Of a stretch of 64,000 nt of DNA, positions 19,695-60,224 are shown piece by piece. The notes beneath the pieces were generated by a model, which worked only from the letters and a program-made list of their open reading frames with translations, was not told the DNA's origin and searched no databases. The position numbers were made by a program, and so were the translations under genes. Every line of letters begins with the position of its first letter. Positions within the stretch are counted from its first letter, which is position 1. This stretch comes from Lytechinus variegatus (Eukaryota > Echinodermata > Echinoidea > Temnopleuroida > Toxopneustidae): the NCBI RefSeq assembly GCF_018143015.1, contig NC_054740.1, positions 45,253,422 through 45,317,421 on the forward strand. The letters run 5' to 3'.

Positions 19695-20014
19695 CTACTG
19701 CTCGGTTAACTTTAAATTTCGGATCGATAACGCCATACTTCTTACAGAGGCTTTGGTATCAGATGCCTGCATTACACTGTACACTTCAGATGCCATGAAC
19801 TCCCAGAAATTTTGAATTACTTGGGCAAAATGGACTCCAAATACATGAGACTTAAAAAGCCTGTAAGTGGCTTCCACCACTTTCTGTCCCGCTTCAATCA
19901 CTACCCTGTCTGCAATCAAGAAATATTGTAGTGGATTGCGTCTGTGTCCAGGCAATAGGGCTGCCGAAACTCAGTAGACTTCCCAGCTGCTGCCGCTTGA
20001 ACGTCTGTCCCAAT
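19695..20014 (-). pseudogene. Terminal exon D of a SAMD3-like protein, with an apparent frameshift
   Basis: On the minus strand a strong acceptor ('ctttctgcttctttgccag') precedes the exon at 20014. It opens in phase 0 with IGTDVQAAAAGKSTEFRQP, then that frame stops. A second frame continues with LLPGHRRNPLQYFLIADRVV, then VFGVHFAQVIQNFWEFM and SLALSIRNL-like sequence to TAG at 19695-19697. The two halves fit one protein only with a one-base shift between about 19955 and 19975, so the copy is either decayed or carries a sequencing error. The pattern (VGTD, then a hydrophobic LI.D..V segment, then YVFG..YP..V..FFEF-like) resembles the C-terminus of uncharacterised SAMD3-like proteins. It would follow exon C (60109-60224), whose end HVP joins naturally to IGTD. 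Family naming is from memory and tentative; that it is a coding exon is much safer. Confidence 0.6.
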
Positions 20015-20435
20015 CTGGCAAAGAAGCAGAAAGAAGTGATAGTTGAGCATTGACAACATGATCTACAAATTTTAAAAGCATATAGGCCCCAACAATATAA
20101 TATTCAAACAAATGTAGCACCTAATTAATCTCATATTCAAACAGGGAGGAAAAAATTGCATGATGTAAACCTGTAGTATATTTGAAACAAACCCATGGAT
20201 GAAGCTTTGGGAGGCTGCCACAATCCATAAACAGCCAACAATGAGGTTTTGCCAGTGAAGGAGAGATTAATGACTGAATGTATTAGCTGGAATTTGTATT
20301 ACATAAGATATTGGAATGCATCTTCAGGATGGCATACACCACTGCATTATGGCCTCTTTCAAGTTCTGGCTCTGCAATTTCTAATCATCATATTATATGG
20401 CATTGTGTGTACACAGGACTAGTACACACGCATAG
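20015..20435 (-). other. Probable intron upstream of exon D
   Basis: No certain exon. On the minus strand about 20390-20290 reads open for roughly 30 residues (EPELERGHNAVVYAILK...) after an AG, but I see no donor, so it is not called. Confidence 0.35.
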
Positions 20436-20890
20436 CTAGGCAACGCGGCGCGTTTTCATTATTCGTACAGCGACGACTTGAGTGTATGTTGGATAGGACC
20501 GTACCATTTTTGACCGGGGGTGTGCCAATGAATGCAAGTGATCAAGAAGAGTTACAAAACTGAAGGGAGTGAGAACACAAGGAAAGTGAGAGGGAAATTT
20601 ATGAAAACAAGTAATGCGAGGAAAAATGACAAAAAGGAGAGAAAGGAGAAGAAGTGAAAACACGCAGCTGAGTGCGCTCACGATATGTAAGTTGAACACC
20701 CCTGCACCGCAATGTGAGCAGCCCGCCACTATACACGTAGACTGCCTGCACGCGCGATGCGAAGACAGCGGCGCGGCGCGTATTAGTGACTGTGCGTTAA
20801 ACGTCCCATTTCTATGCCTTATAAGAGGAGCGTTTTTTGTACACAACAAATTGATATGCGGTCTCGGTAGAACGACTCCCACCTTGAAAT
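20436..20890 (-). repeat. Repeat module Z+X (GTTGAACACCCC junction), copy 1
   Basis: The stretch 20436-20700 matches 48310-48640 in inverse orientation ('gtacagcgacgac', 'gtgccaatgaatgcaagtg', 'gctgagtgcgctcacgatat'). The stretch 20700-20850 matches 21438-21580 in inverse orientation ('gacagcggcgcg', 'gttaaacgtcccatttctatgcc'). An open frame of about 148 codons spans both modules on the minus strand but resembles no protein I know and changes module midway. I treat it as incidental. Confidence 0.6.
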
Positions 20891-21109
20891 AAAGTTGTCA
20901 GAAATGTGCCCATGTTCTGTTTCAAAGTCCATGTTGATCTGTAAAATCAAACAGGAATAAGTATATTTTTGTAAACTTTCATGCTTGTAATAGTAAAACA
21001 TTGGGTCCATGATTCAATGCGTACATTTTGCCTAGTTCATTAAACATGGACATAACCCACATAAGGATAATTAATGGAGAAAGAAACCCTAGAAACCATG
21101 CAGTTGAAT

Positions 21110-21260
21110 TCATATCAAAGTGAAAAATCAAAGAAACATGTTGTTGAAAGTTTGAGCCAGATTGAATGAATAATAAGAAAGTTATATGAGTATCTGAATA
21201 TTCAGATCACTATGCCATGTAGACCCTCCCATTGGCAATGCGACCAAGATCTGTGATTTC
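21110..21260 (+). repeat. Half of a foldback repeat (ATCACTAATGCTATGGAG type)
   Basis: 'agaaagttatatgagtatctgaatattcagatcactatgcc' and 'ccattggcaatgcgaccaag' match one arm of the foldback at 23415-24049. The other arm is absent here. Confidence 0.55.
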
Positions 21261-21437
21261 ACATTACTTTAATACTTACCTCACTTAAATTCTCTATTGC
21301 AAGATGAGGTGTTATTTTATGAGAGGACAAACACAGAGGTTTCACAGCATTATATCTTGGATGATTTGTTTGTCATATCATAAGAATGAGCAAAATGAGA
21401 CATTTTGGGGTATATTTTCAGTGTCCAAAGCATATCA

Positions 21438-21590
21438 ATTTGTTGTGTACAAAAAACGCTCCTTTTATAAGGCATAGAAATGGGACGTTTAACGCACAGT
21501 CACTAATACGCGCCGCTGTCTTCGCATCGTGCAGGCAATCTACGTGTATAGTGGCGGGCTGCTACATTGCGGTGCAGGCCCTGATAGCAA
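21438..21590 (+). repeat. Repeat module X, inverted relative to 20700-20850
   Basis: Begins 'aatttgttgtgtacaaaaaa' and carries 'gggacgtttaacgcacagtcac' split by a few mismatches; ends at GCGGTGCAGG followed by CCCTGATAGCA. With 20700-20850 it forms a long inverted repeat about 590 bp apart. Confidence 0.7.
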
Positions 21591-21595
21591 AAACT

Positions 21596-22105
21596 GGGTA
21601 AAAAGACGTTATATTGACGTCATTTTACGACGAGTATCACATCGTTTTGACGTCGTAAAAAGACGTCTTAAAGTCAACTATTTGCACCAACGCACGTCGT
21701 CATATCAACGTCGTAAAATGACGTGATTATGACGTCTTAATAAGTCGAATACGACGCCTTTATGACGTTTTTACGCCATATTCCTGACCAGTATTACACG
21801 TCTTTATGACTTGATTATGACGTCATTAATGGTTACTTACAACGTCTTTATAACGTCTTTATAACGTATTCATTACCAGTATTATACGTCAGATTGACGT
21901 CGTATATTGACGTGATTATGATGTCATTAATGGTCACTTATAACATCTTTATGACGTGATTATGACGTGATTAATAGTCACTTTATAACATATATATGAC
22001 CAGTATTAGACGTCATCTGGACATGATTTTAAGGTCTTTAATAGTCGACTACGATGTCATATTGATGTAATTTTGACTTATTATGACGTGATAATGATTT
22101 ACATA
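21596..22105 (+). repeat. TGACGT-rich degenerate tandem array 1
   Basis: About twenty ACGT cores in 510 bp, mostly TGACGT or ACGTCT, with recurring phrases 'attatgacgtcattaatggt' and 'gaccagtattana'. TGACGTCA occurs perfectly near 21614 and 21817. The companion array at 47515-48310 has the same vocabulary in a different unit. Confidence 0.8.
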
Positions 22106-22500
22106 TGAAATTGTACATGAAAACACAACTCGAACGTACAGTTAACCTAGCTTAGTTCAAAATATTAAAGAAATCAAATCATGGGTTGATCAGTTCCAAT
22201 ATTTTTACGATTGCAAGATTGACTGTAGGTCCAAGACTTGTCAAGAACAGACAAAACACAAACACCCATACACACAGTCACACACATTAAACGATAAATC
22301 AAATACACATTTCAATTGTGAACTCAGTTACAAATATTTTATTAATAAATTCAAGAAATCGCGTAACAAAACTTTTTTCCTTTAAGAATACAGTATGTGG
22401 TGTATTCTTGTAAATACAACATACAACAAGTTGGATTTTACTCTTACAGGGTGCGGATTGCTTTCCCAAAAGTTTGACAAGCTAAAAAAAAAAGGTAATT
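22106..22500. other. No gene recognised
   Basis: AT-rich, with a short CA-rich stretch near 22255-22290. Nothing further seen. Confidence 0.5.
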
Positions 22501-22940
22501 TGGCTTTCAGAATTGGCACCCCCCCCCCCCCCCATTCCGTGTCTGGTCAAAGAACTATGAAACCAGTTACAATGTCTGTTAATAAATACAGAGATACAAT
22601 TTGGATAAATTGCCTATTCATCTATTGTCAACTCATCCACTGTGATCATGGCCTACCTCATTTAGTCAAAAGACAATTGGTCCATCAACGAAATATCTAA
22701 CAACCATTTGGTCCAATAATCTTCTAATCACCAGCTTGTCTATGACCATTTCATCTCATAACCAGTTGGTCTAATACCAATTTTCTTTTCCTTCATTTTG
22801 TCCGATTGACACTTATTACACTTGGTCCAATTAGACCAAATGGTTTGGCAATTAAACCAATTGGTTATTCAGAAAAAATGGTGGGTGGACGAACTGATGG
22901 TAAACCAAATGATAGCGTTCGACTGATAAACCCATGCAGA
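22500..22940. repeat. GGTCCAATTAGACC-rich degenerate repeat
   Basis: After a C-run near 22520, words such as 'ccatttggtccaataa', 'ccagttggtctaata' and 'ggtccaattagaccaaatgg' recur in both orientations. This is the vocabulary of block 2 of the composite repeat at 10716-11120, so it is probably a relic of that family without blocks 1 and 3. Confidence 0.55.
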
Positions 22941-23414
22941 GTCTGAGATATTAAGGTAAATACAATACTGATGTCCAAGAAATATGGCTTCCAAGTACCT
23001 TATTTTAAACAAGAAATGGCTTACCCTGAACAATATGTCTGTGAAAATAATACCAGATTTGCAGCGATACTCAAATGGAAGCTCATATTTATTTGGATGT
23101 AAGCAACATGTATTCATTTTAACTAAGTATGGTTTGTGATTGTCGCTTAAAAGTTTCACCTTGGTAACAGCAGTTTTCCATATATACATAATAATGAAAA
23201 ACACCCAAGTTTAAGGTGAATACTTCACTTGCATACATGAGTGAAATTCCTGACACCAGCTAGAGCCTGACCCAGTTAAAATATTTCTCGATATTGTGTA
23301 GCATGAGTTGTACTGCGTGAATATAATGCTGATATATAAGAAATAATTGCTTACAAGTATAAAAAATTTAACTAAAATGAGTAAATCAAATACCACATAA
23401 AATAAATTTTCTCT
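22941..23414. other. No gene recognised
   Basis: AT-rich sequence. Two weakly similar segments contain 'gtgaatacaatactgatgtccaagaaatat'-like words (near 22960 and 23320), hinting at an old direct repeat. Confidence 0.4.
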
Positions 23415-24049: not shown

Positions 24050-24475
24050 TATGTAACAATAAGGATCAGTGCGAACGACCCATCATTTCTCGCGCTACAA
24101 CCCGCCCTTTTCTCTTGTTTTGACAAAAATGGGCGTGACCTTACTTTCAAACGGCCATTGCGCCATACGAGTTGACCAATTGAATTAAATATGAAAAAGG
24201 TTGTATCATTTTGACCTCCGGGCGAATAGTTGTCAAACTTGACATTGATATACGTTAATTATCAAGCTAATTTTTACAATTCTTCATCTCCTAAATCTTC
24301 TATCATACCAATGATCTACGTTTTCTTTATTATTTTGTTTTAGTAAAGTTTGTAAAAGCCTCACAATGAACATGACGAATTCCCCCAACTGAAATTATAG
24401 TAGAAATAGATCAAAAGAAATCGACCTTTTTCAGATGAATGAAATGAAACATTAAACTCATGTTCTAAGGGGAGG
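24050..24475. other. No gene recognised
   Basis: A somewhat GC-richer patch at 24065-24180 is flanked by AT-rich sequence. No exon borders found. Confidence 0.45.
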
Positions 24476-27811: not shown

Positions 27812-28832
27812 CCCTAATTCTGCCAGGGGAGGGCCATAATGCCCCCCCCCCCTCGACAATTTTTGCGATATCTGCTGCGCAAAGTTTTTTGACCTCGCCG
27901 CTCACTGACTTTTTACTTTTAAGTCTCGCATAAATTTTGAGACCAAATTTGTGACACCCGGGTGCGCGGTTACGACATTACACGTCAAAATGTAAGTGTA
28001 TTTCAGGGCTCGAATTAATCCAAGGCCATGGCCTTAGATGCCCTCAGAAATGGCCTTGATGCCCTTCATATATTTGTAGACTTAAGGCCAAAATAACTGC
28101 CCTTTTTTGCTGTGGCCTTGGTGCCCTGCGGTAATCCAGTGCATGTGCCCCATTGAAAAGTGCATTTATTACTGATGCCCTTTTTTTGGTGGCCTTGGAT
28201 GTCCCATAAAGTGAAAACTGCCTGCCCTTTCCCTTAAGTGCCCTTTTAAAAAATGGCCTTGCCCCTTTAAATTCTTAATTCGAGCCCTTATATTTTTCAT
28301 GTACAAATCCAATGCAAATAGTGTACCGGGTATTTAGCCAAAATTCAGAAACGTATCATTATTTCTACTTTTACTGATTAAACAATATTAATTTTGCCTT
28401 GTTTATGATCAGAATTCACTCTGGAACGATTTTTATCGAAAAAAGTACAAAAAAAAAAGAAATACATAAATTAAAAAAGCAATAAAATACATAAGAAATC
28501 GGTCTTGGCACCAGGATTTTTTCATTCACAATTGTTAGGAATGCTATAAAGAATATTTCACCAAAAATAGCATTCTATGAGCTTTATTTAGTGAATCAGA
28601 GCAAAAAGTATGATTTCATGAATAAAATACATAAGTTTCATGAATAAATTAGAAAATTAATTCCTACAAAATAAAAATATATGAATTCAGTGAAATTTAC
28701 CAATGCAACTGCGTAGATTATGTCACTCTCTACCATCATGCAAATTTTCATTGTGATAGCGCAATCCGTGGCTGAGATCTTAAGGGGGGCCCTAATGCCC
28801 CCAAGAATCAAAATACCCCAGGAGATTTAGGG
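27812..28832 (+). mobile_element. TTAA-flanked MITE (piggyBac-like), copy 2, with nested insertion
   Basis: TTAA at 27808-27811 then CCCTAATTCTGCC; right end GATTTAGGG then TTAA at 28833-28836. Inner wording parallels copy 1 ('gctcactgactttttactt', 'gtacaaatccaatgcaaata'). A 284-bp element (28005-28288) is inserted. The left breakpoint of the 5.2-kb tandem duplication falls within that insertion. Confidence 0.8.
28005..28288. mobile_element. 284-bp MITE with AGGGCTCGAATTAA ends, nested
   Basis: AGGGCTCGAATTAA and TTAATTCGAGCCCT are perfect inverted ends. The flanks TGTATTTC and TATATTTT match at 6 of 8 positions, consistent with an aged 8-bp duplication. Interior is rich in 'ggccttg'/'tgccctt' words. 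No coding sequence; hAT-like by duplication length only. Confidence 0.75.
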
Positions 28833-29033
28833 TTAATCTACAGGAATAATGTTGGAGTATCAGTCACTGTCAATGATTACATAACTTTCCTTCATTCTCA
28901 TTTTAACATTGGAACAAATAAACTGAATCAAACATGGAGCTCATGTTCATGTAAAAAAAAATCCCTTCCAAAAGTGATAATTGTACTCACCACTACACAA
29001 AACAGCATATTTGCATGACTTTTGTTCCATCAG

Positions 29034-29173
29034 TCCATGTTGATGAAATCAGGATTGACACTGAATTAAATGTGGAGCGTAGAGTTGTTCCAACTGTCCC
29101 AGATGATGTCACTGAAATTGAAATGATTATTTATTTAGTCTATCGATCAGATATACATGTCCTAAAGCTTCAG
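29034..29173 (+). CDS. Candidate internal exon, unrecognised (copy 1)
   Basis: An open 140-bp stretch bounded by an acceptor ('gacttttgttccatcag') and a donor (CAG then GTACTC). In the only well-behaved frame it reads HVDEIRIDTELNVERRV, then VPDDVTEIEMIIYLVYRSD and HVLKLQ. The composition is protein-like and mixed, with a possible beta-rich segment; entry phase 1, exit phase 0. I do not recognise a family. The donor is mediocre and no partner exon was found nearby, so this may be a fragment captured in a repeat. Confidence 0.35.
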
Positions 29174-29999
29174 GTACTCACCACTCATTCCACATGCAAT
29201 TTTAATGGCAAATGCACAATCTTCGTGACTGTAGTGTGACAAACGACTCCTTTAGTATTAATATTTTGTACATAAAATTGCAAATTGTAGAGAAAACAAA
29301 AAAAAATCATTTTTTTTAGGTGTATGCACCTTCATTTATATTTTTCCAACAATAGAACATGTTTTAAAAACTGAGAACTGAGGAACAAGAAAAAAAATTG
29401 CATGATAAATCGAGTGTGTATTAGATATAAGGACACCTTCAAAATCGGGCGGCAAAATTTAAAGGTGTTTGGAAAAGATGGAAGCGATATTTTGGTTTGA
29501 GATATTTTCTAATCATAAATTAATATATGATTTGCCATATGATTGTCCATCACTACCAATTTTCAGACAGGGATTATTTTTTTAGAAAAAACACATCTCT
29601 TCTGAATTGGGTCTATGTACAATTACATTTATAAGCAAGGCCAAGCCTACCTGAAGTGATGTTCGAGCAGGCTTTTCTCCTCTTCATTACCGCTCCACTT
29701 CCCCGAACTTCAAGTCGTTGAACTCGTTCAGATACTCTGAGTGGCAAAGGTGGGGAAAATGCATATTTATTGTAAAAAATATCCCCCAAAAGACATCAAC
29801 AATAAATAAAAGCTAGATTTCTTGCTCTAATCCTCCGGTTACCTCAATAAGACAAAATGCTATGCCTTGGAATGGAAATTTGAGTGTAAAACAGGGGGGT
29901 TCCCACTGCGGCACATACCCACCACACATTATGTACTAAGTACCTTGGCTCTAAGACCAAGTCTAAGTCAAGAGTAAGAAATTAAACTTGGCGTTAATG

Positions 30000-30794
30000 C
30001 AGTTTCGCAGCGGCTGGTAACCAGCATACCTCATCACCAATATTTGTTCCCAAATGTCATGACAAGTCTCTCAGTCACATTTCGATGTCAATATATCCAC
30101 CACTTTTCAAAATATCGTGATTGGGAATGGCTGTATTTCGGCTTCGATCTCAACGTCGTTGATCGACACAGCATAGACATCGCTTCGCAGATCGCTTGGA
30201 TTCACCGTGCACCGTAATGTTGATATGAACTGAAGTTAGCAACCAAATCATGCGAAAATGTGGCGAACAAACTGCCAGCATGCCGCATGCGAATCTATGT
30301 TCGCATGATTTGGTTGCTAACTTCCGTTCATATCAACATTACGGTGCACGGTGAATCCAAGCAATCTGCGAAGTGACATGGCGTAGACATCGCTTCGCAG
30401 ATCGCTTGGATTCACCGTGCACAGTAATGTTGATATGAACTGAAGTTAGCAACCAAATCATGCGAAAATGTGGCGAACAAATTGCCAGCATGCCGCATGC
30501 GAATCTATGTTCGCATGATTTGGTTGCTAACTTCAGTTCATATCAATATTACGGTGCACGGTGAATTCAAGCGATCCGCGAAGCGATGTCGATCAACGAC
30601 ATTGAGATCGAAGACGAAATACAGCCATTCCCGATCACAATATTTTGAAAAGTGGTGGATATATTGACATGAAATGTGACTGAGACTCTCAGTCACATTT
30701 CGATGTCAATATATCCACTTGTCATGACATCTGGTAACAAGTATTGGTGATTAGGTGTGCTGGTAATCGGCCGGTGCGAAACTGCATTAGCGCC
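30000..30794. mobile_element. 795-bp foldback transposon with GGCGNTAATGCAG ends and 8-bp target duplication (copy 1)
   Basis: GGCGTTAATGCAGTTTCGCA at the left mirrors TGCGAAACTGCATTAGCGCC at the right. TTAAACTT is present directly outside both ends (29992-29999 and 30795-30802). Inside, 'tgattcaccgtgcaccgtaa'-type sequence and 'catgatttggttgctaactt' occur as two successive inverted pairs, so almost the whole element can fold. No transposase is encoded; hAT- or Mutator-like by duplication length. Confidence 0.88.
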
Positions 30795-30839
30795 TTAAAC
30801 TTTAATGCATTGTTGGTTGGGGGGGGGGGGCCCCCTTAT

Positions 30840-31995
30840 AAAAATCGCCAATGGTATTTGAATGGTGCCGAATGGTAGTTGAATGGTAATCTGAATGGTA
30901 AATGGTACGCGAATGGTATTTAAGTGGTGTTTCAATGGTAAGTTCTTAATGGTAATTGGTAGTTTATTTAATGGTAAATGGTATACCATATACCGAATGG
31001 TGTTTCAGTGGTATGTGACTAATGATATGATTGGTATGATGAATGGTATACCATTTACCCAATGGTGTCTCAGTGGTATTCAATGGTGTCTCAGTGGTAT
31101 GTGCTTGTAATGGTATGATTGGTATGATGAATAGTATACCATACATCCAATGGTGTCTCAGTGGTATACAATGGTGTCTCAGTGGTATTCAATGGTGTCT
31201 CAGTAGTATGTGCATGTAATGGTATGATTGGTATGATCAATGGTATACCATACACCAATGGTGTCTCAGTGGTATACAATGGTGCTCAGTAGTATATGCC
31301 TCTAATGGTATGACTGGTATAATGGATGGTATACCATGCACCAATGGTGTCTCAGTGGTATACAATGGTGTCTCAGTGGTATTCAATGGTGTCTCAGTAG
31401 TATGTGTCTTTGATGGTATGACTGCATGGTATACCATGATATACCCAATGGTGTCTCAGTGGTATACAATGGTGTCTCAGTGGTATTCAATGGTGTCTCA
31501 GTGGTATGTGCTTGTAATGGTATGATTGGTATGATGAATAGTATACCATACATCCAATGGTGTCTCAGTGGTATACAATGGTATCTCAGTGGTATTCAAT
31601 AGTGTCTCAGTAGTATATGCCTCTAATGGTATGACCGGTATAATGAATGGTATACCATGCACCAATGGTGTCTTAGTGGTATACAATGGTGTCTCAGTGG
31701 TATTCAATGGTGTCTCAGTAGTATGTGTCTCTATAATGGTATGACTGGTATGATGAATTGTATACCATATACCCAATGGTGTCTCAGTGGTGTCAAATGG
31801 TGTCTGGGTAGTATGTGCCTCTAATGGTATGACTGCATGGTATACCATTATATACCCAATGGTGTCTCAGTGGTATACAATGGTGTCTCAGTGGTATTCA
31901 ATGGTGTCTCAGTAGTATGTGCCTCTATAATGGTATGATTGGTATCAATATGGTGTCTTAGTAGTATGTGCCTAGTGGTATATAATATAATCATG
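30840..31995 (+). repeat. TGGTATACCA minisatellite, array 1 (copy 1)
   Basis: Units of about 83-114 bp each start with a palindromic GGTATACCAT and continue with several copies of AATGGTGTCTCAGTGGTAT, 'agtagtatgtgcctctaatgg' split by variants, and GGTATGACTGGTATGATG. Less regular AATGGT words begin at 30840 after a G/C run and TTATAAAAATCGCC. Long open frames on both strands are simply the repeat read in frame. Confidence 0.9.
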
Positions 31996-33475
31996 TTGGA
32001 TAATTGTAAAGCTATAGTGGCTTAGTGGTGTTTGCCTAATGAATGCCATTTGTGTTAATGCTGAATGATATGCCCAATTGCATTACCCATTAACATAATT
32101 CCGAAGATTTAAAGAAAATATATCAAAGATTAAAAGGTATTTAGAGTTAATTAAATATTTGACCTGTGACTTTTATGCGAGCAGCTTCCCCAAATCAAGT
32201 GTAATCGCTCATGATTGTAAACATGGTCTCTTGCATTCTTTTAAATTGTCTTTGTCCTTATTAAGTAAAAGGTCTATATGTGTTTAAATATTATTGATCC
32301 AGTGGTTATGATACAATATTAAAAATTTGTTATATTTTGCTATTGTACATAAATTTAAATCTGATGCAATGGGTGCATGCAAAAATAAAATCAATCGGTC
32401 AATGAAATCTTTTTTGATAAAAAGGGTTTTAATATTTAATTAATAAGTTTTATTCTATTTTTATAATCATTTTGCTTGTTTATGGCCGCTTTTTATAAAA
32501 AGAACTATATATTGTGTATATATATATAGTGTTCCAAGAAGATATTTGCAATCAATCCCAAAATTCGATCAGATGCAAATTTACAGGTGATGATACATTC
32601 AGTTTATCTAGAACATATCAATTTGGATTTTTTTATGGATCAGTTGCAAGTTTGCAATGAAAAGTATGACTCTCATTATTTTGGAGTCTGAAATTGATTT
32701 GCGTTCGATTGCTTCGATTGCAAGTTTCTTGCAATGCCCCATATAGTTTTGCTAAAAATGAATTCACTGTTGGTTGTCTTGGTCCCCCAACCTCTATCAA
32801 ATTCCCATCCGCAAACCCTGATTTGGTCTGTCTGCAACGTCAAAAGCCCCATCTGACCCATTTGTACGCTATTATAGCTGCTTCCATTCATGAATTATGC
32901 ACCCTTTTTTTACAAATGATATTTCCAAAATTCTAATTCTATTTTAGGCTCTAAATATTCTTTCCCACTTGTGGACGGCGTTTATAAAGAGGAGAGCTAT
33001 TCTATAGGCCGGCATTACTTGATTGAAATGATTTATCCACATGGTCTTGCTCCCTCACCCCTATCAAAATTCCCTGCCGCCATACAGGGTATCGTACAAT
33101 GTAACAGAAAAGAAATCTACTGAATGAAATCTCAATTTCAATCATTACAAAAGCAAATTAAAAGGGAAGAGGAGTGAGTAAAAAATATATATATAAAGGG
33201 GAAAAAACAAGAAAAGAAAAAAGGCAAAGAAGAAAAGAAAGATTAACAGAAAAGAAAAAAAGACAACGAAAATAAAAAAGAAAATAACATAGAGAACAGG
33301 AAAAAAAAGTGAAGGGATCGAAAACTTTTTTCATATATTCCAAGATCCAAGGAAATTCAGTGGCATGCACTCACGCCATCATGGTTTCCAACCCAGAACC
33401 AATCGAGAGGAAAAAGAAGACACCCCTGATTTGGTTTTAATTCACCCCCCCCCCCCCATATCGGGATGTGTATTA
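31996..33475. other. No gene recognised (inside duplicated unit)
   Basis: AT-rich sequence with a purine-rich tract at 33160-33320. A mildly less AT-rich segment at 32690-32890 is open on both strands, but it lacks exon borders and resembles nothing I know. The same sequence recurs at 37205-38684. Confidence 0.45.
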
Positions 33476-34242
33476 TTAAATTCTTAATTCGAGCCCTTAT
33501 ATTTTTCATGTACAAATCCAATGCAAATAGTGTACCGGGTATTTAGCCAAAATTCAGAAACGTATCATTATTTCTACTTTTACTGATTAAACAATATTAA
33601 TTTTGCCTTGTTTATGATCAGAATTCACTCTGGAACGATTTTTATCGAAAAAAGTACAAAAAAAAAAGAAATACATAAATTAAAAAAGCAATAAAATACA
33701 TAAGAAATCGGTCTTGGCACCAGGATTTTTTCATTCACAATTGTTAGGAATGCTATAAAGAATATTTCACCAAAAATAGCATTCTATGAGCTTTATTTAG
33801 TGAATCAGAGCAAAAAGTATGATTTCATGAATAAAATACATAAGTTTCATGAATAAATTAGAAAATTAATTCCTACAAAATAAAAATATATGAATTCAGT
33901 GAAATTTACCAATGCAACTGCGTAGATTATGTCACTCTCTACCATCATGCAAATTTTCATTGTGATAGCGCAATCCGTGGCTGAGATCTTAAGGGGGGCC
34001 CTAATGCCCCCAAGAATCAAAATACCCCAGGAGATTTAGGGTTAATCTACAGGAATAATGTTGGAGTATCAGTCACTGTCAATGATTACATAACTTTCCT
34101 TCATTCTCATTTTAACATTGGAACAAATAAACTGAATCAAACATGGAGCTCATGTTCATGTAAAAAAAAATCCCTTCCAAAAGTGATAATTGTACTCACC
34201 ACTACACAAAACAGCATATTTGCATGACTTTTGTTCCATCAG

Positions 34243-34382
34243 TCCATGTTGATGAAATCAGGATTGACACTGAATTAAATGTGGAGCGTAGAGTTGTTCC
34301 AACTGTCCCAGATGATGTCACTGAAATTGAAATGATTATTTATTTAGTCTATCGATCAGATATACATGTCCTAAAGCTTCAG
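34243..34382 (+). CDS. Candidate internal exon, unrecognised (copy 2)
   Basis: Base-for-base copy of 29034-29173 in the second duplication unit, with the same acceptor and donor. Confidence 0.35.
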
Positions 34383-35208
34383 GTACTCACCACTCATTCC
34401 ACATGCAATTTTAATGGCAAATGCACAATCTTCGTGACTGTAGTGTGACAAACGACTCCTTTAGTATTAATATTTTGTACATAAAATTGCAAATTGTAGA
34501 GAAAACAAAAAAAAATCATTTTTTTTAGGTGTATGCACCTTCATTTATATTTTTCCAACAATAGAACATGTTTTAAAAACTGAGAACTGAGGAACAAGAA
34601 AAAAAATTGCATGATAAATCGAGTGTGTATTAGATATAAGGACACCTTCAAAATCGGGCGGCAAAATTTAAAGGTGTTTGGAAAAGATGGAAGCGATATT
34701 TTGGTTTGAGATATTTTCTAATCATAAATTAATATATGATTTGCCATATGATTGTCCATCACTACCAATTTTCAGACAGGGATTATTTTTTTAGAAAAAA
34801 CACATCTCTTCTGAATTGGGTCTATGTACAATTACATTTATAAGCAAGGCCAAGCCTACCTGAAGTGATGTTCGAGCAGGCTTTTCTCCTCTTCATTACC
34901 GCTCCACTTCCCCGAACTTCAAGTCGTTGAACTCGTTCAGATACTCTGAGTGGCAAAGGTGGGGAAAATGCATATTTATTGTAAAAAATATCCCCCAAAA
35001 GACATCAACAATAAATAAAAGCTAGATTTCTTGCTCTAATCCTCCGGTTACCTCAATAAGACAAAATGCTATGCCTTGGAATGGAAATTTGAGTGTAAAA
35101 CAGGGGGGTTCCCACTGCGGCACATACCCACCACACATTATGTACTAAGTACCTTGGCTCTAAGACCAAGTCTAAGTCAAGAGTAAGAAATTAAACTTGG
35201 CGTTAATG

Positions 35209-36003
35209 CAGTTTCGCAGCGGCTGGTAACCAGCATACCTCATCACCAATATTTGTTCCCAAATGTCATGACAAGTCTCTCAGTCACATTTCGATGTCAA
35301 TATATCCACCACTTTTCAAAATATCGTGATTGGGAATGGCTGTATTTCGGCTTCGATCTCAACGTCGTTGATCGACACAGCATAGACATCGCTTCGCAGA
35401 TCGCTTGGATTCACCGTGCACCGTAATGTTGATATGAACTGAAGTTAGCAACCAAATCATGCGAAAATGTGGCGAACAAACTGCCAGCATGCCGCATGCG
35501 AATCTATGTTCGCATGATTTGGTTGCTAACTTCCGTTCATATCAACATTACGGTGCACGGTGAATCCAAGCAATCTGCGAAGTGACATGGCGTAGACATC
35601 GCTTCGCAGATCGCTTGGATTCACCGTGCACAGTAATGTTGATATGAACTGAAGTTAGCAACCAAATCATGCGAAAATGTGGCGAACAAATTGCCAGCAT
35701 GCCGCATGCGAATCTATGTTCGCATGATTTGGTTGCTAACTTCAGTTCATATCAATATTACGGTGCACGGTGAATTCAAGCGATCCGCGAAGCGATGTCG
35801 ATCAACGACATTGAGATCGAAGACGAAATACAGCCATTCCCGATCACAATATTTTGAAAAGTGGTGGATATATTGACATGAAATGTGACTGAGACTCTCA
35901 GTCACATTTCGATGTCAATATATCCACTTGTCATGACATCTGGTAACAAGTATTGGTGATTAGGTGTGCTGGTAATCGGCCGGTGCGAAACTGCATTAGC
36001 GCC
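35209..36003. mobile_element. Foldback transposon with GGCGNTAATGCAG ends (copy 2)
   Basis: Identical to 30000-30794, including the TTAAACTT duplications on both sides. It was copied with the segment and did not insert independently. Confidence 0.88.
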
Positions 36004-36048
36004 TTAAACTTTAATGCATTGTTGGTTGGGGGGGGGGGGCCCCCTTAT

Positions 36049-37204
36049 AAAAATCGCCAATGGTATTTGAATGGTGCCGAATGGTAGTTGAATGGTAATC
36101 TGAATGGTAAATGGTACGCGAATGGTATTTAAGTGGTGTTTCAATGGTAAGTTCTTAATGGTAATTGGTAGTTTATTTAATGGTAAATGGTATACCATAT
36201 ACCGAATGGTGTTTCAGTGGTATGTGACTAATGATATGATTGGTATGATGAATGGTATACCATTTACCCAATGGTGTCTCAGTGGTATTCAATGGTGTCT
36301 CAGTGGTATGTGCTTGTAATGGTATGATTGGTATGATGAATAGTATACCATACATCCAATGGTGTCTCAGTGGTATACAATGGTGTCTCAGTGGTATTCA
36401 ATGGTGTCTCAGTAGTATGTGCATGTAATGGTATGATTGGTATGATCAATGGTATACCATACACCAATGGTGTCTCAGTGGTATACAATGGTGCTCAGTA
36501 GTATATGCCTCTAATGGTATGACTGGTATAATGGATGGTATACCATGCACCAATGGTGTCTCAGTGGTATACAATGGTGTCTCAGTGGTATTCAATGGTG
36601 TCTCAGTAGTATGTGTCTTTGATGGTATGACTGCATGGTATACCATGATATACCCAATGGTGTCTCAGTGGTATACAATGGTGTCTCAGTGGTATTCAAT
36701 GGTGTCTCAGTGGTATGTGCTTGTAATGGTATGATTGGTATGATGAATAGTATACCATACATCCAATGGTGTCTCAGTGGTATACAATGGTATCTCAGTG
36801 GTATTCAATAGTGTCTCAGTAGTATATGCCTCTAATGGTATGACCGGTATAATGAATGGTATACCATGCACCAATGGTGTCTTAGTGGTATACAATGGTG
36901 TCTCAGTGGTATTCAATGGTGTCTCAGTAGTATGTGTCTCTATAATGGTATGACTGGTATGATGAATTGTATACCATATACCCAATGGTGTCTCAGTGGT
37001 GTCAAATGGTGTCTGGGTAGTATGTGCCTCTAATGGTATGACTGCATGGTATACCATTATATACCCAATGGTGTCTCAGTGGTATACAATGGTGTCTCAG
37101 TGGTATTCAATGGTGTCTCAGTAGTATGTGCCTCTATAATGGTATGATTGGTATCAATATGGTGTCTTAGTAGTATGTGCCTAGTGGTATATAATATAAT
37201 CATG
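36049..37204 (+). repeat. TGGTATACCA minisatellite, array 1 (copy 2)
   Basis: Same units in the same order as 30840-31995. Unit-by-unit identity, including irregular spacing, shows the two arrays have not drifted since duplication. Confidence 0.9.
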
Positions 37205-38689
37205 TTGGATAATTGTAAAGCTATAGTGGCTTAGTGGTGTTTGCCTAATGAATGCCATTTGTGTTAATGCTGAATGATATGCCCAATTGCATTACCCATT
37301 AACATAATTCCGAAGATTTAAAGAAAATATATCAAAGATTAAAAGGTATTTAGAGTTAATTAAATATTTGACCTGTGACTTTTATGCGAGCAGCTTCCCC
37401 AAATCAAGTGTAATCGCTCATGATTGTAAACATGGTCTCTTGCATTCTTTTAAATTGTCTTTGTCCTTATTAAGTAAAAGGTCTATATGTGTTTAAATAT
37501 TATTGATCCAGTGGTTATGATACAATATTAAAAATTTGTTATATTTTGCTATTGTACATAAATTTAAATCTGATGCAATGGGTGCATGCAAAAATAAAAT
37601 CAATCGGTCAATGAAATCTTTTTTGATAAAAAGGGTTTTAATATTTAATTAATAAGTTTTATTCTATTTTTATAATCATTTTGCTTGTTTATGGCCGCTT
37701 TTTATAAAAAGAACTATATATTGTGTATATATATATAGTGTTCCAAGAAGATATTTGCAATCAATCCCAAAATTCGATCAGATGCAAATTTACAGGTGAT
37801 GATACATTCAGTTTATCTAGAACATATCAATTTGGATTTTTTTATGGATCAGTTGCAAGTTTGCAATGAAAAGTATGACTCTCATTATTTTGGAGTCTGA
37901 AATTGATTTGCGTTCGATTGCTTCGATTGCAAGTTTCTTGCAATGCCCCATATAGTTTTGCTAAAAATGAATTCACTGTTGGTTGTCTTGGTCCCCCAAC
38001 CTCTATCAAATTCCCATCCGCAAACCCTGATTTGGTCTGTCTGCAACGTCAAAAGCCCCATCTGACCCATTTGTACGCTATTATAGCTGCTTCCATTCAT
38101 GAATTATGCACCCTTTTTTTACAAATGATATTTCCAAAATTCTAATTCTATTTTAGGCTCTAAATATTCTTTCCCACTTGTGGACGGCGTTTATAAAGAG
38201 GAGAGCTATTCTATAGGCCGGCATTACTTGATTGAAATGATTTATCCACATGGTCTTGCTCCCTCACCCCTATCAAAATTCCCTGCCGCCATACAGGGTA
38301 TCGTACAATGTAACAGAAAAGAAATCTACTGAATGAAATCTCAATTTCAATCATTACAAAAGCAAATTAAAAGGGAAGAGGAGTGAGTAAAAAATATATA
38401 TATAAAGGGGAAAAAACAAGAAAAGAAAAAAGGCAAAGAAGAAAAGAAAGATTAACAGAAAAGAAAAAAAGACAACGAAAATAAAAAAGAAAATAACATA
38501 GAGAACAGGAAAAAAAAGTGAAGGGATCGAAAACTTTTTTCATATATTCCAAGATCCAAGGAAATTCAGTGGCATGCACTCACGCCATCATGGTTTCCAA
38601 CCCAGAACCAATCGAGAGGAAAAAGAAGACACCCCTGATTTGGTTTTAATTCACCCCCCCCCCCCCCCCATATCGGGATGTGTATTTAT

Positions 38690-48310: not shown

Positions 48311-48645
48311 GTCTGCTATCAGGGGGGGTGTTCAACTTACATATCGTGAGCGCACTCAGCTGCGTGTTTTCACTTCTTCTCCTTTCTCTCCTTTTCTTGT
48401 CATTTTTCCTCGCATTACTTGTTTTCATAAATTTCCCTCTCACTTTCCTTATTTTCTCACTCCCTTCAGTTTTGTAACTCTTCTTGATCACTTGCATTCA
48501 TTGGCACACCCCCCGGTCAAAAATGGTACGGTCCTACCCAACATACACTAAAGTCGTCGCTGTACGAATAATGAAAACGTGCAAAATTCTTCACGCGTTG
48601 CGTTGCCTGGCTATGCGTGTGTACTGTGTACACACAATGCCATCG
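48310..48645 (+). repeat. Repeat module Z, copy 2 (inverse of 20436-20700)
   Basis: Starts at CAGGGGGGGTGTTCAACTTA and contains 'cgtgagcgcactcagctgcg', 'ttgatcacttgcattcattgg' and 'gtcgtcgctgtacgaataat', all inverse of the first copy. It ends near GTGTGTACTGTGTACAC. Confidence 0.7.
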
Positions 48646-50029: not shown

Positions 50030-50197
50030 AAGTTCTGGCATCTCTTGTATCCTTGGAAACGTGGTGATGAAGTCTGTAATGGTCACGTCTGTCCTCTTCT
50101 TCAGCATCATTTGACGATAAGCAGGAGTGTCTTTGAAAAATTTGATAATTTTCCCCTTATTTGCTGCAGTGGGAACTGTGTGCTTCATCCAGTTAAC
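50030..50197 (-). CDS. Exon A, SAMD3-like uncharacterised protein
   Basis: On the minus strand the acceptor is 'ctactgtctttcag' and the donor GTAAGT follows CTT. The 168-bp exon is exactly 56 codons, phase 0 at both ends: VNWMKHTVPTAANKGK, FFKDTPAYRQMMLKKRTDV, TITDFITTFPRIQEMPEL. A 'VNW' start, then an 'YR...' motif, then 'I...FPRI' matches my recollection of the middle of SAMD3-like proteins found in fish and invertebrates, just before the segment 'F.LL....AD.L..KW'. Exon B (59491-59638) begins with just such a segment and in the matching phase, but lies on the opposite strand 9.3 kb away. No function is established; coding status is strong, family name tentative. Confidence 0.75.
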
Positions 50198-51530: not shown

Positions 51531-52305
51531 TTAAAGGTCAGTCCACCTCAGAAAAGTGTTGATTTCAATCAATAGAGAAAAATCAGATAAGCACAATGTT
51601 GAAAATTTCATCCAAATTGGATGTAAAATAAGTTATGACATTTCAAAGTTTCGCTTATTTTTAATTAAACAAAATAGTTATATGAACGAGCCAGTTACAT
51701 CCAAATGAGAGAGTCGATGATGTCACTATTTCCTTCTTTTTTTTCTAATTCTACAATATTTCAATTTTTACGAATCTGACGATTTGGACCTCCTTGCCTG
51801 AAGCAAAAAATATTAAAATAATGGAATTCCATGGAATTCCATTATTTTAATATTTTTTTTTGCTTCAGGCAAGGAGGTCCAAATCGTTAAATTCGTAAAA
51901 ATTGATGGAATTCCATTATTTTAATTTTTTGCTTCAGGCAAGGAGGTCCAAATCGTCAAATTCGTAAAAAATGAAATAATGTAGAAGGGAGGAATGGAAT
52001 TCCATGTGTTAAGGGAGGAATGAGAGCTTCATTTCACATGACAATGAGTAATGACGAGAAAATAAAAATATTTCATATAATAAAATACAAAAGAAATAAT
52101 GAGTGAGTGATGTCATCAGTTCCTCACTTTCATACCGACCGAGATGTGCATAACTAACTTTTTTTGTGAAATGAAGCGAAACTTTGAAATGCCATAACTT
52201 TCTTATTTTTACATCCACTTTGGATGAAATTTTCAGTGTTATGATTATTGAATTTTTCTCCTTTTATTCAAATCAAGTTTTTGTTAGGGTGGACTTGTCC
52301 GTTAA
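51531..52305. repeat. Foldback element, copy 4, with expanded inner hairpin
   Basis: TTAAAGGTCAGTCCACC at the left and GGGTGGACTTGTCCGTTAA at the right. The middle holds a second, nearly perfect hairpin of about 105 bp centred near 51832 ('gatttggacctccttgcctg' pairing with 'caggcaaggaggtccaaatc'). A third copy of that arm lies at about 51905-51965. Confidence 0.85.
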
Positions 52306-53664: not shown

Positions 53665-53758
53665 GTAAGTTCATTTGGTGTTAAGTATGCTAACTTTATT
53701 AGAATAACTAATTATATGGCGGCAAAACGGGTGTTTTATCAAGTTGGGAATAGTCGAC

Positions 53759-54184: not shown

Positions 54185-54195
54185 TACAACCGATA

Positions 54196-55019: not shown

Positions 55020-55354
55020 AATTGACCAGTGATCTCACTCAATATCTATGTCAATGTCATAAATCTATTTTAGGTTCTGCATTTTGAATATCTCCAGCCA
55101 TCAGTCGTAATATACATGCATGTATGCGGTACGGGTGTCGCGGAAAGGGATTTTGCACACGAAAAGCAGATTTGTAGGGCCTGTAACCCCCCTGTTACAC
55201 AAAGCTTAGCATTGATCGTAGAGCAGTTTTCTACGTTTGATTCTATTGACTGTAATGCACAATCAATCTTAAAAATCAAGTGTATGATTAAGCGTTAACT
55301 TTTGTGTTAGGGGACCCTAATACTAGCGTCCGTGATGATTGCGAAAGGTCCCAA
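55020..55354. other. No gene recognised; possible outer terminus of a larger element
   Basis: TTTGTAGGGCCTGTAAC at 55171-55187 is the near-inverse of GTTGTAACAGGTCCTACAAA at 58293-58312, so 55171-58312 may be one large inverted-repeat unit. Confidence 0.35.
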
Positions 55355-56305
55355 ATGTCGCACCAACGCATAATGTCGCAGCAACGCATAATGTCGCAAT
55401 CTGCGACATTATGCCAAGAGCGTCCGACGCATAATGTCGCAGTCAACGCATAATGTCGTAGTTTTTCTAACGCATAATGTCACATGTCGCAACGCATAAT
55501 GTCGCAGCAAATCGTTAACGCATAATGTCACATGTCGCAACGCATAATGTCACAGCGGTATTTTCTTAAGGCCTTGAGCTACAGATAAGATATAAAACAT
55601 GCTTTTACTTAGTATTTTGAGACACGAAAAAGAGAATGAAATTATTTTGAAATCAGGATTACTCTTTGTATGGATATTTGTCGCTTTATTGCCATTTCGT
55701 CTACTGCCTTTTCCCCACTGTCGCATGGTCTGATATCATTTCGTCTACCATTAGTTAGTCAACTATCAACATTGTCCAATAACCATTTCGTCTAATTACC
55801 ATCTCGTCTAATAGCCAGTTGGTCTAATAGCCGTTGTGTTTATTATCATTTAGACTAATTGTATTTTTTTTCAGTTGGTCCAATATCCATTTTGTCCAAA
55901 ATCATTACGTCTATTACCTTTTGGTCTAATAACCACTTGGTGTACTCTCATTTTCGTCCATGTTCCATTTGGTCTAACTTCAGTTGGTTCGCTATGACTT
56001 TGTCTAAACCCATTTCGGCAAACAATCATTTGGTATCGTTGCCATGGGTCCAATCACCATTAGGTCCTATCATCGGTTCTAGGACAATGATCCCCAGAAA
56101 ATCACCTTCCGGACAACCACCTCTTAACATTTAGCCTCCGAGAACAATTACCCCCCCCCCCCCCGACAATTACCCCCGGACAATCATCCCCTGGACAATT
56201 ATTTCGCAGACAATTACCCCCCCCCCCAGCAATTGCCCCCGAGGACAATAATTCCCCAGACAGTTACCGCCAAACAATTACCCCCCGAAAATCCCCCCCC
56301 CCATT
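55355..56305 (-). repeat. Three-block composite repeat, copy 2 (inverted)
   Basis: In inverse order: CAACGCATAATGTCGCA repeats (55355-55555), a spacer with 'tacagataagatataaaac', TTGGTCTAATAACC / TTTCGTCTA repeats (55690-56085), then GGACAATTACCCC repeats (56085-56305). Confidence 0.88.
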
Positions 56306-57371
56306 TCTCTCTGGCATCGAATCAAGCGTGACCCCAGGGGCGGAGGGGGCACTCGACAAAAAAAACGAGGGGTCCTTGGAACGTCCGCCGGGTGCGCTCG
56401 CGCAGAGGTGATGGTCGGACAGCGCTCTGCGGCCGCATTTCACCAAAACTGCAGCTCATTGTAGCAGATCAATGTGACCGGAACGGCGTAACGAAAAATA
56501 TGACAAGCTTTGGAGCGGATTTCTTTCTTCTTTTTTCTCGATAAGAAGAACATTTTTTGCCTTGGAGCGGCTTTATTTGTTCTTTTTCTCAATAAGACAA
56601 AGATGCTATGCCTTGGAACGGAAATTTGAGTGTAAAAATAGGGGTCACCTCCGCTGCACATTATCATATACTGAGTGCCCCCCCCCCCCCCGGCGTGAAC
56701 CATTATAATGGTCTGGGTCGGTGGCACAGGTTTTCAATATATTTTCTACTTTATCTTATGTTAATAACTTTCTCTCTTATATCGCTCTTTCTCCCTTTTT
56801 CTCTCTCCCTCTCTCTCATTTTCTTCTTTTTCATTTTTTCTTCCTTTTCCGCCTTCTTTCTTTTTGTTTAGCAATGCCTTCTGCATCATGAAAAATGGGG
56901 GTGGGGGCTTGCGCTATATAGCTACGCATATGTACATCAGAAAATGTGTAAACTGGCCCACATACTAAGTTTTCATAGAACAATTGAACATTCATGAAAA
57001 GACACGATTAGACATAATAATCACAAATGCCTAATTTCTCTGATTCCAACTGATCTGATTTTTTCTTGATTCATTTGGGGTTTAATTTCAGGAAAAATCA
57101 GGAAAATAGATAAAACATTAAAAAGACACCTTCACAGGTAGTCGGTAACGCAAACCATCAACACTACTATTGACAAGAAAAACCTATAAACCTGTTATTT
57201 TAAAACAATTCATCTATCAAGAAGCTAAGAATTATGAAACAATTGGTGCACATTCCAGATTAAGATGTGGCTTTAGTTTTAATACAGCAAGCAAAAAAAA
57301 AATATGCAAAGATAATATACACAAGAACGCTTTGTAATTTTACTATTTAGGCCCTAACTCTGTGCACTCCC
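56306..57371. other. Spacer between inverted composite repeats, no gene recognised
   Basis: Starts GC-rich ('ggggcggagggggcactcg'). 56575-56700 resembles 29845-29945 ('gctatgccttggaacggaaatt' type wording). A C/T-rich tract lies at 56760-56870, then AT-rich sequence. Confidence 0.5.
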
Positions 57372-58301
57372 TTTGTCTAGGGGGTTATTGTCCCCGGGGC
57401 AGGGTAATTGTCCTCGGGGGGGGGGGGGTAATTTCCTAAGGGGTAATTATCCGGGGGTAGTTGTCCGGGGGTAATTGACCTCGGGTGGGTAAAATTGTCA
57501 GGGATTAGTTGTCCGGAAGGGTGATTGTCCGTGGGGTAATTGTCCTAGAACCAATGATTGGACCTATTGGTGATTGGACCCGTGGCAACGATACCAAATG
57601 AGTATTAGCCGAAATGGATTTAGACAAAGTGATAGCGAACCAACTGAAGTTAGACCAAATGGAACATGGACGAAAATGAGAGTACACCAAGTGGTTATTA
57701 GACCAATTGGCTATTAGACCAAAAGGTAATAGACGTAATGATATTGGACAAAATGGATATTGGACCAACTGAAAAAAATACAATTAGACTAAATGATAAT
57801 AAACACAACGGCTATTAGACCAACTGGCTATTAGACGAGATGGTAATTAGACGAAATGGTTATTGGACTATGTTGATAGTTGACTAACTAATGGTAGACG
57901 AAATTATATCAGACCATGCGATAGTGGGGAAAAGGCAGTAGACGAAATGGCAATAAAGCGACAAATATCCATACAAAGAGTAATCCTGATTTCAAAATAA
58001 TTTCATTCTCTTTTTCGTGTCTCAAAATACTGAGTAAAAGCATGTTTTATATCTTATCTGTAGCTCAAGTCCTGAAGAAAATACCGCTGTGACATTATGC
58101 GTTGCGACATGTGAAATTATGCGTTAACGATTTACTGCGACATTATGCGTTGCGACATGTGACATTATGCGTTAGAAAAACTACGACATTATGCGTTGAC
58201 TGCGACATTATGCGTCGGACGCTCTTGGCATAATGTCGCAGATTGCGACATTATGCGTTGCTGCGACATTATGCGTTGGTGCGACATTATCGGTTGTAAC
58301 A
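57372..58301 (+). repeat. Three-block composite repeat, copy 3
   Basis: Same order as copy 1: GGGGTAATTGTCC words (57372-57545), ATTAGACCAAATGG words (57545-57960), spacer, TGCGACATTATGCGTTG words (58085-58290). Ends GGTTGTAACAGG. Very close to copy 1, 47 kb away, including the spacer. Confidence 0.9.
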
Positions 58302-58304
58302 GGT

Positions 58305-58835
58305 CCTACAAAAACATCATCTTTTGCTCTGGATTTTCTCAAAATCTGTGCAGTAAATACCAAAAATATTTGCTAATAAAAGTAATATGTGTGCTTTGTT
58401 ATATTGTCTGTTAAATTAGAATCGACTTTCAATCAATTAGGCCTAGAAACCTAAGGGGCCTAATGAAATCACAAAGTTCTTAAAAATTTCTGTCTTGTCC
58501 GGACAAACAACCCGTCCGGACACAACAACCGGGTATAGATTCTAGGCCCTAACGTTAGGTCTAACGTTAAGTTAAAGCCTGTAACTTAGACCAAGGGTCT
58601 AGATCTATAGCCTATCTACCCGGTTGTTGTGTTTCCGGACGGGTTGTTTGTCGATCCGGACAACATTTTATGAAGTTTGTGATCAATATTCTAGACTAAT
58701 CGATTGAAAGTAATACAGACAATAGAATCTAGATCTAGGACAAAGCACAAACATTAGCAAATATTTTTGGTATTTACTGCACAGATTTTGAGAAAATCCA
58801 GAGCAAAAGATGAAGTTTTTATCTGCTTAACAGTG
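58305..58835. repeat. Foldback element with TCCGGACAAACAACCCG arms
   Basis: 'catcttttgctctggatttt' at 58317 pairs with 'aaaatccagagcaaaagatg' near 58793. 'tccggacaaacaacccgtcc' at 58499 pairs with 'ggacgggttgtttgtcgatc' near 58636. The centre is CTAGA/AACGTTA-rich. Non-coding. Confidence 0.75.
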
Positions 58836-59490
58836 AGTTAGACCTAACGTTAGAGTCTAGGGTCTATATAAGTATCCGGACAACGGACCCCCCCCCCCCA
58901 TCATACGTAGGCTGTATTGCCTAGATTTAGATCTAAGTCTGCGCAACTGAAATTTTATCTCAATTTCAATAAAAAGTAAAATATTTTTTTTTACGATTCA
59001 TCAATGTTAGATTTATTCCATTCTTTATATTCTAATGATCAATGAAGCAAAATATCTCAAGAAATCATTTAGAAAGAAAGTCTACAAGAACAGTGTTATT
59101 TTATAATTTTTAGACAGGCTTGTCGTTTCGTAAAATAACACTGTTCTTGACTAGGGTCTAGACCTATCCTAGATTAGGTCTGTTGGAATAGGATGTGGTT
59201 GGTAATGGATAATGACATCAGTACAGATCACAAATAGAGGCTAGATGGACATTATTGTTTATGTCTAGACTAGAGCACATTTAATAATGCGTCTTGCTGT
59301 GACTTCAGTTGAGAGCCAGCCAGCCAGACCTAGTTTTGGTAGTATTCCTGTATTTATATATTTTTTTAATGTGTATGGATTAAATCTATGCATGCATAAT
59401 ATTGTACTTCTCAAGTCCATCAAACTTAAAGCTATTTTATCTTATTTATTTGTTTTAATATTTTGTTTGCTATTTGCCTAATTTTCTTAG
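58836..59490 (+). other. Probable intron upstream of exon B
   Basis: AT-rich with a C-run near 58893. A ~20-bp inverted pair is present ('agaacagtgttattttataa' near 59087 and 'taaaataacactgttcttga' near 59121). Ends in a T-rich tract and CTTAG, the acceptor of exon B. Confidence 0.6.
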
Positions 59491-59638
59491 ATTGGCATCG
59501 ATTTTGCGTTACTACATGAAGATGCAGCCGACAAACTGCTGTCAAAGATGTCAACCTTGAGGGAGAAGATCATATTGCAGGGCCATCAGGAATCTGAAAG
59601 CATCAAGGAAGTAGTGAAACGCTACGAAGATACAAACA
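59491..59638 (+). CDS. Exon B, SAMD3-like uncharacterised protein
   Basis: Acceptor 'cctaattttcttag', donor ACA then GTAGGT. Only one frame is open, phase 0 in and phase 1 out: IGIDFALLHEDAADKLLSKM, then STLREKIILQGHQESESIKE and VVKRYEDTN. The pattern of an aromatic/hydrophobic 'F.LL....AD.LL.K' helix followed by 'I...' and 'I...L..Y' matches my memory of the central region of SAMD3-like proteins. It splices cleanly to exon C. Exon A, which would precede it, is on the other strand. Function unknown. Confidence 0.8.
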
Positions 59639-60108
59639 GTAGGTTAATGATTTTACCGCATCCTGTGAACCTGATTCAACTTATAGGGTCCTAAGATGTC
59701 TTAGGACCCTGAAAGGTCATGGAAATATTTTCCCAGATTACTGTGTTTAGAAATAAATAGTTATTCAGGTTGAGTAATGTTACATAATTTCAGCAAATTT
59801 ATCCTTCATATATTTATTGATGTCATGAAAACATTGTTGTATCTAATGTTCTTAAATCAGTTGACTTTTAGTGTTTGGTGACTGGTTGGGCTGGAACTTC
59901 CTAGAGTTTAAACCCTAAAAAGGCAGGCAGGGAGAGAGGGAAGGGTGCTTTCATATTTAGTCATTAATGTATTATCAGAATGCAAATTGCAGAGGAGCCG
60001 GCAACACTTGTTGTTCTACTTCTCCATCTGAAGGGTAACACATGATCCAGAAATTACCTTGTTCTAAAATGTAAAGATTTCATTTATGAATTTTCATTCA
60101 TCTTTCAG
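59639..60108 (+). other. Intron between exons B and C
   Basis: 470 bp, opening GTAGGT and closing in 'cattcatctttcag'. No repeats of note. Confidence 0.8.
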
Positions 60109-60224
60109 GAGATCTTTGTGCACTACTAACTGTGCTCTACACACTGCATCGGCCGGTGCCAAAGTCGAAGGGCGTAAACTGTAGCAGATCTGCAGCAGTA
60201 CACTACCTTGTACAGCATGTGCCA
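60109..60224 (+). CDS. Exon C, SAMD3-like uncharacterised protein
   Basis: Continues exon B across a phase-1 junction (AGA, arginine). It reads DLCALLTVLYTLHRPVP, KSKGVNCSRSAAVHYLVQHVP, and ends in phase 0 at a good donor (GTGAGT). In the related proteins a hydrophobic 'LL.L..ML.P' helix and a 'K...A...L......VGTD' segment come next; exon C supplies the first and exon D (19695-20014, opposite strand) opens with IGTD. The true downstream partner on this strand should lie beyond the satellite array, to the right of the window. Confidence 0.8.

What the first reader, a model, noticed from the sequence alone, without database searches (positions are those of the whole stretch)
19695..60224. One protein's consecutive exons scattered on both strands
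Exon A (50030-50197, -), B (59491-59638, +), C (60109-60224, +) and D (19695-20014, -) read as adjacent parts of one SAMD3-like protein, and the junction phases agree: A|B 0-0, B|C 1-1, C|D 0-0. Junction wording is natural (MPEL|IGID, HVP|IGTD). Yet A and D are minus, B and C plus, and no single inversion restores A-B-C-D. Possibilities are two or more paralogues with only some exons recognisable, a multi-step rearrangement helped by the inverted repeats at 20.4/48.3 kb and 55.4/57.4 kb, or an assembly orientation error.
Basis: partly seen in the sequence, partly recalled or inferred. Interest (0 to 1): 0.78.

Follow-up and report, generated by a model that had tools for sequence, protein, structure and literature searches.

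The report
Scattered fragments of an animal-like gene
Four short coding-like pieces that could follow one another in one protein lie on both strands of a repeat-rich stretch; they look like remnants of incomplete gene copies, or of a scrambled or mis-assembled copy, rather than a new kind of gene.

Summary
The four segments exist at the stated coordinates; junction phases A|B 0, B|C 1, C|D 0 are correct. Three corrections. (1) D is open in no single frame: it changes frame between about 19,919 and 19,970. (2) Phase agreement is weak evidence: A|D fits equally, and 9,625 of 85,140 ordered triples of exon-like segments fit. No searched collection held a relative. Each exon was found once. Per strand the order is correct (A, D on minus; B, C on plus). 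I favour two incomplete, divergently oriented family copies, the minus one a pseudogene; one scrambled copy and mis-assembly stay open. Low interest.

The parts
50030..50197 (-). Exon A: 56-codon open segment VNWMKHT...QEMPEL, internal exon-like
   Evidence: family support weak
59491..59638 (+). Exon B: IGIDFALLHEDAADKLL..., enters phase 0, leaves phase 1
60109..60224 (+). Exon C: (R)DLCALLTVLYTLHRP...VQHVP, enters phase 1, leaves phase 0; 470-nt gap after B
19695..20014 (-). Exon D: terminal exon-like segment with a frame change between about 19919 and 19970; frame 0 part IGTD..QPYC, frame 2 part ..YFLIADRVV..LTEQ and stop
20397..20702 (+). Dispersed repeat, inverted relative to 48325-48643 (90%); no target-site duplication seen by eye at the outer ends; the interval between the arms holds none of exons A-D
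48325..48643 (-). Second arm of the above inverted pair
55354..58288 (.). Element with long inverted arms (55354-56262 and 57374-58288), related copy at 10.5-11.4 kb; reads as a dispersed repeat, not a relic of gene duplication
28267..38686 (+). 5.2-kb tandem duplication in the D-A interval; the copies differ only by three extra C bases in the second

Best explanation
A-D are remnants of two incomplete, divergently oriented members of one multi-exon, SAMD3-like animal gene family in a repeat-rich region. The minus-strand member keeps A and a frameshifted terminal exon D, and has lost or diverged B and C; it is probably a pseudogene. The plus-strand member shows B and C and may continue to the right of 64 kb. 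Shown: the segments, phases, frame change in D, per-strand order, and absence of close second copies in the window. Inferred: that they are exons, that they belong to one family, that there are two copies, and how exons were lost.
For: Order is correct within each strand: A before D on minus, B before C on plus with a 470-nt gap. D cannot be read in one frame, as expected of a decaying copy. A|D is in phase, and B+C is 264 nt (88 codons, symmetric 0-0), so loss of B-C leaves the frame of A-D intact. No rearrangement is needed. The two later recalled fish-type sequences align best to the order A-B-C-D of all 24 orders. The surroundings are repeats: 93 self-matches of 80 nt or more after leaving out matches inside six simple-repeat or satellite intervals. 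In the frames scanned, the only Pfam match above its curated cut-off is a reverse-transcriptase piece.
Against: No second copy of A, B, C or D is found; simulated intact copies of 40% identity are nearly always seen (200, 197, 178 and 200 of 200 at E 0.1 for A, B, C and D's second part), so both copies must be incomplete or far diverged. Each exon exactly once, split between strands, is also what one scrambled copy would give. A, B and C are intact, which is not typical of long-dead copies. No upstream (N-terminal) exon was recognised on either strand. Family evidence is mixed: with the first recalled sequences, B and joined B-C score best in an N-terminal part, not where the order predicts (B-C: 0 of 300 shuffles as good).
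Confidence: 0.5

Rival explanations
1. One former gene, scrambled in this genome: the block B-C was moved in inverted orientation out of the A-D interval (one inverted transposition), or two inversions occurred. The gene is broken.
For: Each exon was found exactly once. The left-to-right order D- A- B+ C+ becomes D- C- B- A- by moving one block (reasoning; inversion counts). B-C lies in a 2.6-kb island between the inverted-arm element (ends 58,288) and the satellite array (starts about 60.9 kb).
Against: None of 107 inverted-repeat pairs flips B or C; both minimal two-inversion routes need a breakpoint right of C; the best pair that flips A alone is 75.6% over 275 nt. The 59.0-60.8 kb DNA has no match elsewhere in the window at E 1e-3, apart from a 26-nt inverted match inside itself.
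Confidence: 0.23
2. Assembly artefact: segments of one or two haplotypes or loci were joined in wrong order or orientation.
For: A 5.2-kb tandem duplication whose copies differ only by three extra C bases lies between D and A, and a 272-280-bp satellite reverses orientation near 62.0 kb: both are places where assemblies can fail.
Against: No N in 64,000 bases. A single mis-join does not restore the order; B-C would have to fall between 20.0 and 50.0 kb (reasoning). No long near-identical repeat flanking A or B-C in the right places is listed.
Confidence: 0.17
3. One or more of the pieces, most likely A, is not an exon of this family, so there is no four-exon puzzle: only B-C on plus and D on minus, or less.
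For: A ranks 36 of 122 exon-like candidates. Of 2,445 reading-frame segments it ranks 8 against the recalled human SAMD3 A-region, 21 and 452 against the two other recalled A-regions; B ranks 66 in the SAMD3 B-region and D's second part 151 at the SAMD3 C-terminus. Against later fish-type sequences A alone is at chance (150 and 401 of 1,000 shuffles). B alone against SAMD3: 0.42 of shuffles as good.
Against: A sits colinearly just before B in the alignment of the AB join to recalled SAMD3 (289-394), though 38 of 300 shuffles score as high. Its splice sites are good.
Confidence: 0.08

Closest known systems
SAMD3-like uncharacterised protein family of animals (name and sequences recalled, not from a database call)
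   Same: The C-terminal D part, B and C align in the right order to two fish-type sequences recalled from memory.
   Different: Recalled human SAMD3 gives no support for the order. No SAM domain or N-terminal exon was found in the frames searched. D is frameshifted.
Unprocessed (duplicated) pseudogenes with missing exons (general knowledge)
   Same: Intron-like gaps kept, some exons missing, frame change in an exon.
   Different: No intact parent copy is visible in the window.
Genes with exons on both strands joined by trans-splicing, such as Drosophila mod(mdg4) (recalled)
   Same: Exons on opposite strands with compatible phases.
   Different: No transcript evidence; D has no frame open throughout; the order A-B-C-D needs two switches of strand.

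Membership tests
SAMD3-like protein family | Significant similarity of the C-terminal region to a member | tested here: inconclusive
Pfam, PDB, phage, viral and prokaryote searches gave no relative.
SAMD3-like protein family | Exons A-D colinear with one member | tested here: inconclusive
   ABCD is the best of 24 orders for two recalled fish-type sequences; for recalled human SAMD3 it is not among the six best printed.
SAMD3-like protein family | N-terminal SAM domain | tested here: inconclusive
   None in six-frame Pfam scans of 15-33.5 kb and 39-64 kb, and nothing distinct against the recalled N-terminus; it could lie outside the window, and relatives may lack it.
Unprocessed pseudogene | Disabling change in the coding sequence | tested here: met
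   D is open in no single frame; a sequencing error is not excluded.
Unprocessed pseudogene | Intact parent gene elsewhere in the genome | not testable with these tools
   No genome held for this window.
Repeat-mediated inversion | Inverted repeats in the window whose recombination restores the order | tested here: not met
   Of 107 inverted-repeat pairs (40 nt or more, E up to 0.01), 75 flip no exon, 11 A, 11 D, 10 D and A, none B or C. Repeats beyond 64 kb cannot be judged.
Trans-spliced two-strand gene | A mature transcript joining exons of both strands | not testable with these tools
   No transcript data.

The most novel reading that the evidence does not exclude
A working gene whose exons lie on both strands and are joined by trans-splicing of precursors from the two strands into A-B-C-D, with the frame change in D being a sequencing error.
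Probability: 0.02. Interest if true: 0.85.

Novelty: new member of a known kind. Interest (0 to 1): 0.15.

Why it matters
Mostly as a caution: phase agreement and natural wording across picked segments are weak evidence for one gene, and inverted repeats in a window explain a rearrangement only if their recombination moves the exons. If the exons were really joined in one transcript, it would be a rare two-strand gene.

Tried and rejected
Relatives outside the window: viral contigs and genome contigs, whose short peptide patterns reach mainly close relatives; phages by tblastn; PDB (one match, E 0.42, BamD): no relative. Pfam on each exon and a join: DUF5659 with A at E 0.008 (16.5 bits, cut-off 23.6) and HTH_MCM7 with B at 0.11, both below cut-off. 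Two repeat DNA patterns and the reverse-transcriptase piece in viral contigs, to place the organism: nothing. Papers (I saw only the listings and abstract starts, 15, 0, 0, 8 and 12 rows): nothing on this family in those rows; 276 papers hold the word SAMD3 and I saw 12.

Possible second copies rejected. 52138-52200 (+), A-like at E 0.69, lies in a dispersed repeat and holds a stop. 22872-23210 (-), D-like at E 1.5, is at chance. The 55.4-58.3 kb inverted arms as the centre of an inverted gene duplication: reflection would put the B copy upstream of A on minus, the wrong order, and a related copy at 10.5-11.4 kb points to a dispersed repeat. The 20.4/48.3 arms as ends of one large element: no target-site duplication by eye. 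Structure prediction of the D part, 87 residues, no alignment: mean pLDDT 61.5, three helices, not informative.

Limits. Pfam six-frame scans left out 33.5-39.0 kb (mostly the second copy of the duplication) and covered 2 of 6 frames of 1-15 kb. Weak Pfam rows below cut-off in those scans: DUF4652 (0.049), Zn_ribbon_4 (0.21), SelK_SelG (0.31), TTc_toxin_rep (0.21), UPF0444 (0.06); I take them as chance. The simulation has no gaps or stops, so it is optimistic, and I did not verify that BLAST honoured the database-size setting with a subject file. All recalled family sequences were typed after I had read the window's exons, so their likeness, to B above all, may be biased. The first two found no exon by tblastn except B at E 3.9 in an unexpected part. 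The shuffles permute doublets within 500-nt blocks and are not strictly dinucleotide-preserving.

Full report
What is there. The window is 64,000 bases without N, 34-44% G+C in 4-kb steps, with no whole genome held. No tRNA was found and no Rfam family reached its threshold. The four segments exist as stated. A, B and C are flanked by AG and GT; D starts after AG and ends at a stop, with two AATAAA motifs further on. Phases fit: A|B 0, B|C 1, C|D 0.

D cannot be read through in any one frame: frame 0 gives IGTD...QPYC and then a stop; frame 2 gives the C-terminal part to the stop at 19,695. The change lies between about 19,919 and 19,970, where both frames are open. It is either a disabling mutation or a sequencing error.

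How strong is the case that these are consecutive exons? By splice and codon score alone, A and C are unremarkable (ranks 36 and 17 of 122 overlapping candidates) and B fails the thresholds I set. Phase agreement is near base rate: 665 of 1,980 ordered pairs and 9,625 of 85,140 ordered triples of the 45 non-overlapping exon-like segments fit; A|D, C|A and C|B also fit. The case therefore rests on protein likeness. No library or collection I searched gave a relative.

Protein likeness, for. In pairwise shuffles (n 1,000) D's second part is reached 0 and 0 times, B 0 and 25, C 0 and 4, D's first part 8 and 58, for the two sequences. The order A-B-C-D scores best of 24 with both. The AB join aligns colinearly to recalled human SAMD3 289-394.

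Protein likeness, against. A alone is at chance with those two sequences (150 and 401 of 1,000). With recalled human SAMD3 no single exon stands out (shuffle fractions A 0.057, AB 0.127, B 0.42, C 0.24, D's second part 0.757), and A-B-C-D is not among its six best orders. With the first two recalled sequences, B and B-C score best in an N-terminal part that does not fit the order (B 0.017 of shuffles with one, B-C 0 of 300 with the other), and tblastn with them finds no exon but B at E 3.9. All recalled sequences were typed after I had read the exons, so bias is possible.

Copies. tblastn of each exon and a profile scan of 2,445 reading-frame segments find each exon once; the next profile match has E 1.4. 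That profile includes the window's own exons, so their own scores in it are not evidence. In a gap-free simulation, copies of 40% identity are found at E 0.1 in 200, 197, 178 and 200 of 200 trials for A, B, C and D's second part, and at 30% in 175, 160, 125 and 194. So a close second copy in the window is unlikely; a strongly diverged or decayed one is not excluded.

Rearrangement. Left to right the order is D- A- B+ C+. Exhaustive search gives a minimum of two inversions, by two routes, both with a breakpoint right of C. One inverted transposition of block B-C into the D-A interval also restores the order (reasoning). Flipping D and A through the 10.5/55.4 kb pair (88.6%) would put all exons on one strand but in the order A-D-B-C (reasoning). 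So repeats in the window do not explain the arrangement; breakpoints beyond 64 kb cannot be judged.

Surroundings. Six-frame Pfam scans of 15-33.5 kb and 39-64 kb show one match above its cut-off, a reverse transcriptase on the minus strand at 16.27-16.65 kb. A partial scan of 1-15 kb (2 of 6 frames) shows a SUMO-like match at 3.5 kb, E 1.2e-4 but 22.3 bits against a cut-off of 23.8. Between D and A lies a 5.2-kb tandem duplication whose copies differ only by three extra C bases. Right of C, a 272-280-bp satellite starts at about 60.9 kb and reverses orientation near 62.0 kb.

Judgement. The simplest account needs no rearrangement: minus-strand A and D from one copy, plus-strand B and C from another, both incomplete here, with D frameshifted. 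Against it stands the lack of any detectable second copy. One scrambled gene and mis-assembly are real alternatives that reads, transcripts or a relative genome would settle. Nothing here requires a new mechanism.

Noticed in passing
3485-3619 (+): Terminal-exon-like segment of a SUMO-like gene ([37 protein letters not shown], then a stop); Pfam Rad60-SLD E 1.2e-4 (just below its cut-off), 65% identity over 37 residues to SUMO2 as recalled. No convincing upstream exon in the window.
   Followed up: partly
28267-33474 and 33476-38686: 5.2-kb tandem duplication whose copies differ only by three extra C bases: very recent, or an assembly artefact.
   Followed up: partly
60946-64000: Satellite of 272-280 bp in two arrays of opposite orientation meeting near 62.0 kb; by eye the unit holds an internal hairpin.
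   Followed up: no
55354-58288; related copy at 10537-11415: Element of about 2.9 kb with inverted arms of about 0.9 kb (90%; 98% over the outer 517 nt), foldback-like.
   Followed up: partly
16273-16650 (-): Reverse-transcriptase fragment of a retroelement (RVT_1, E 4.2e-11).
   Followed up: no
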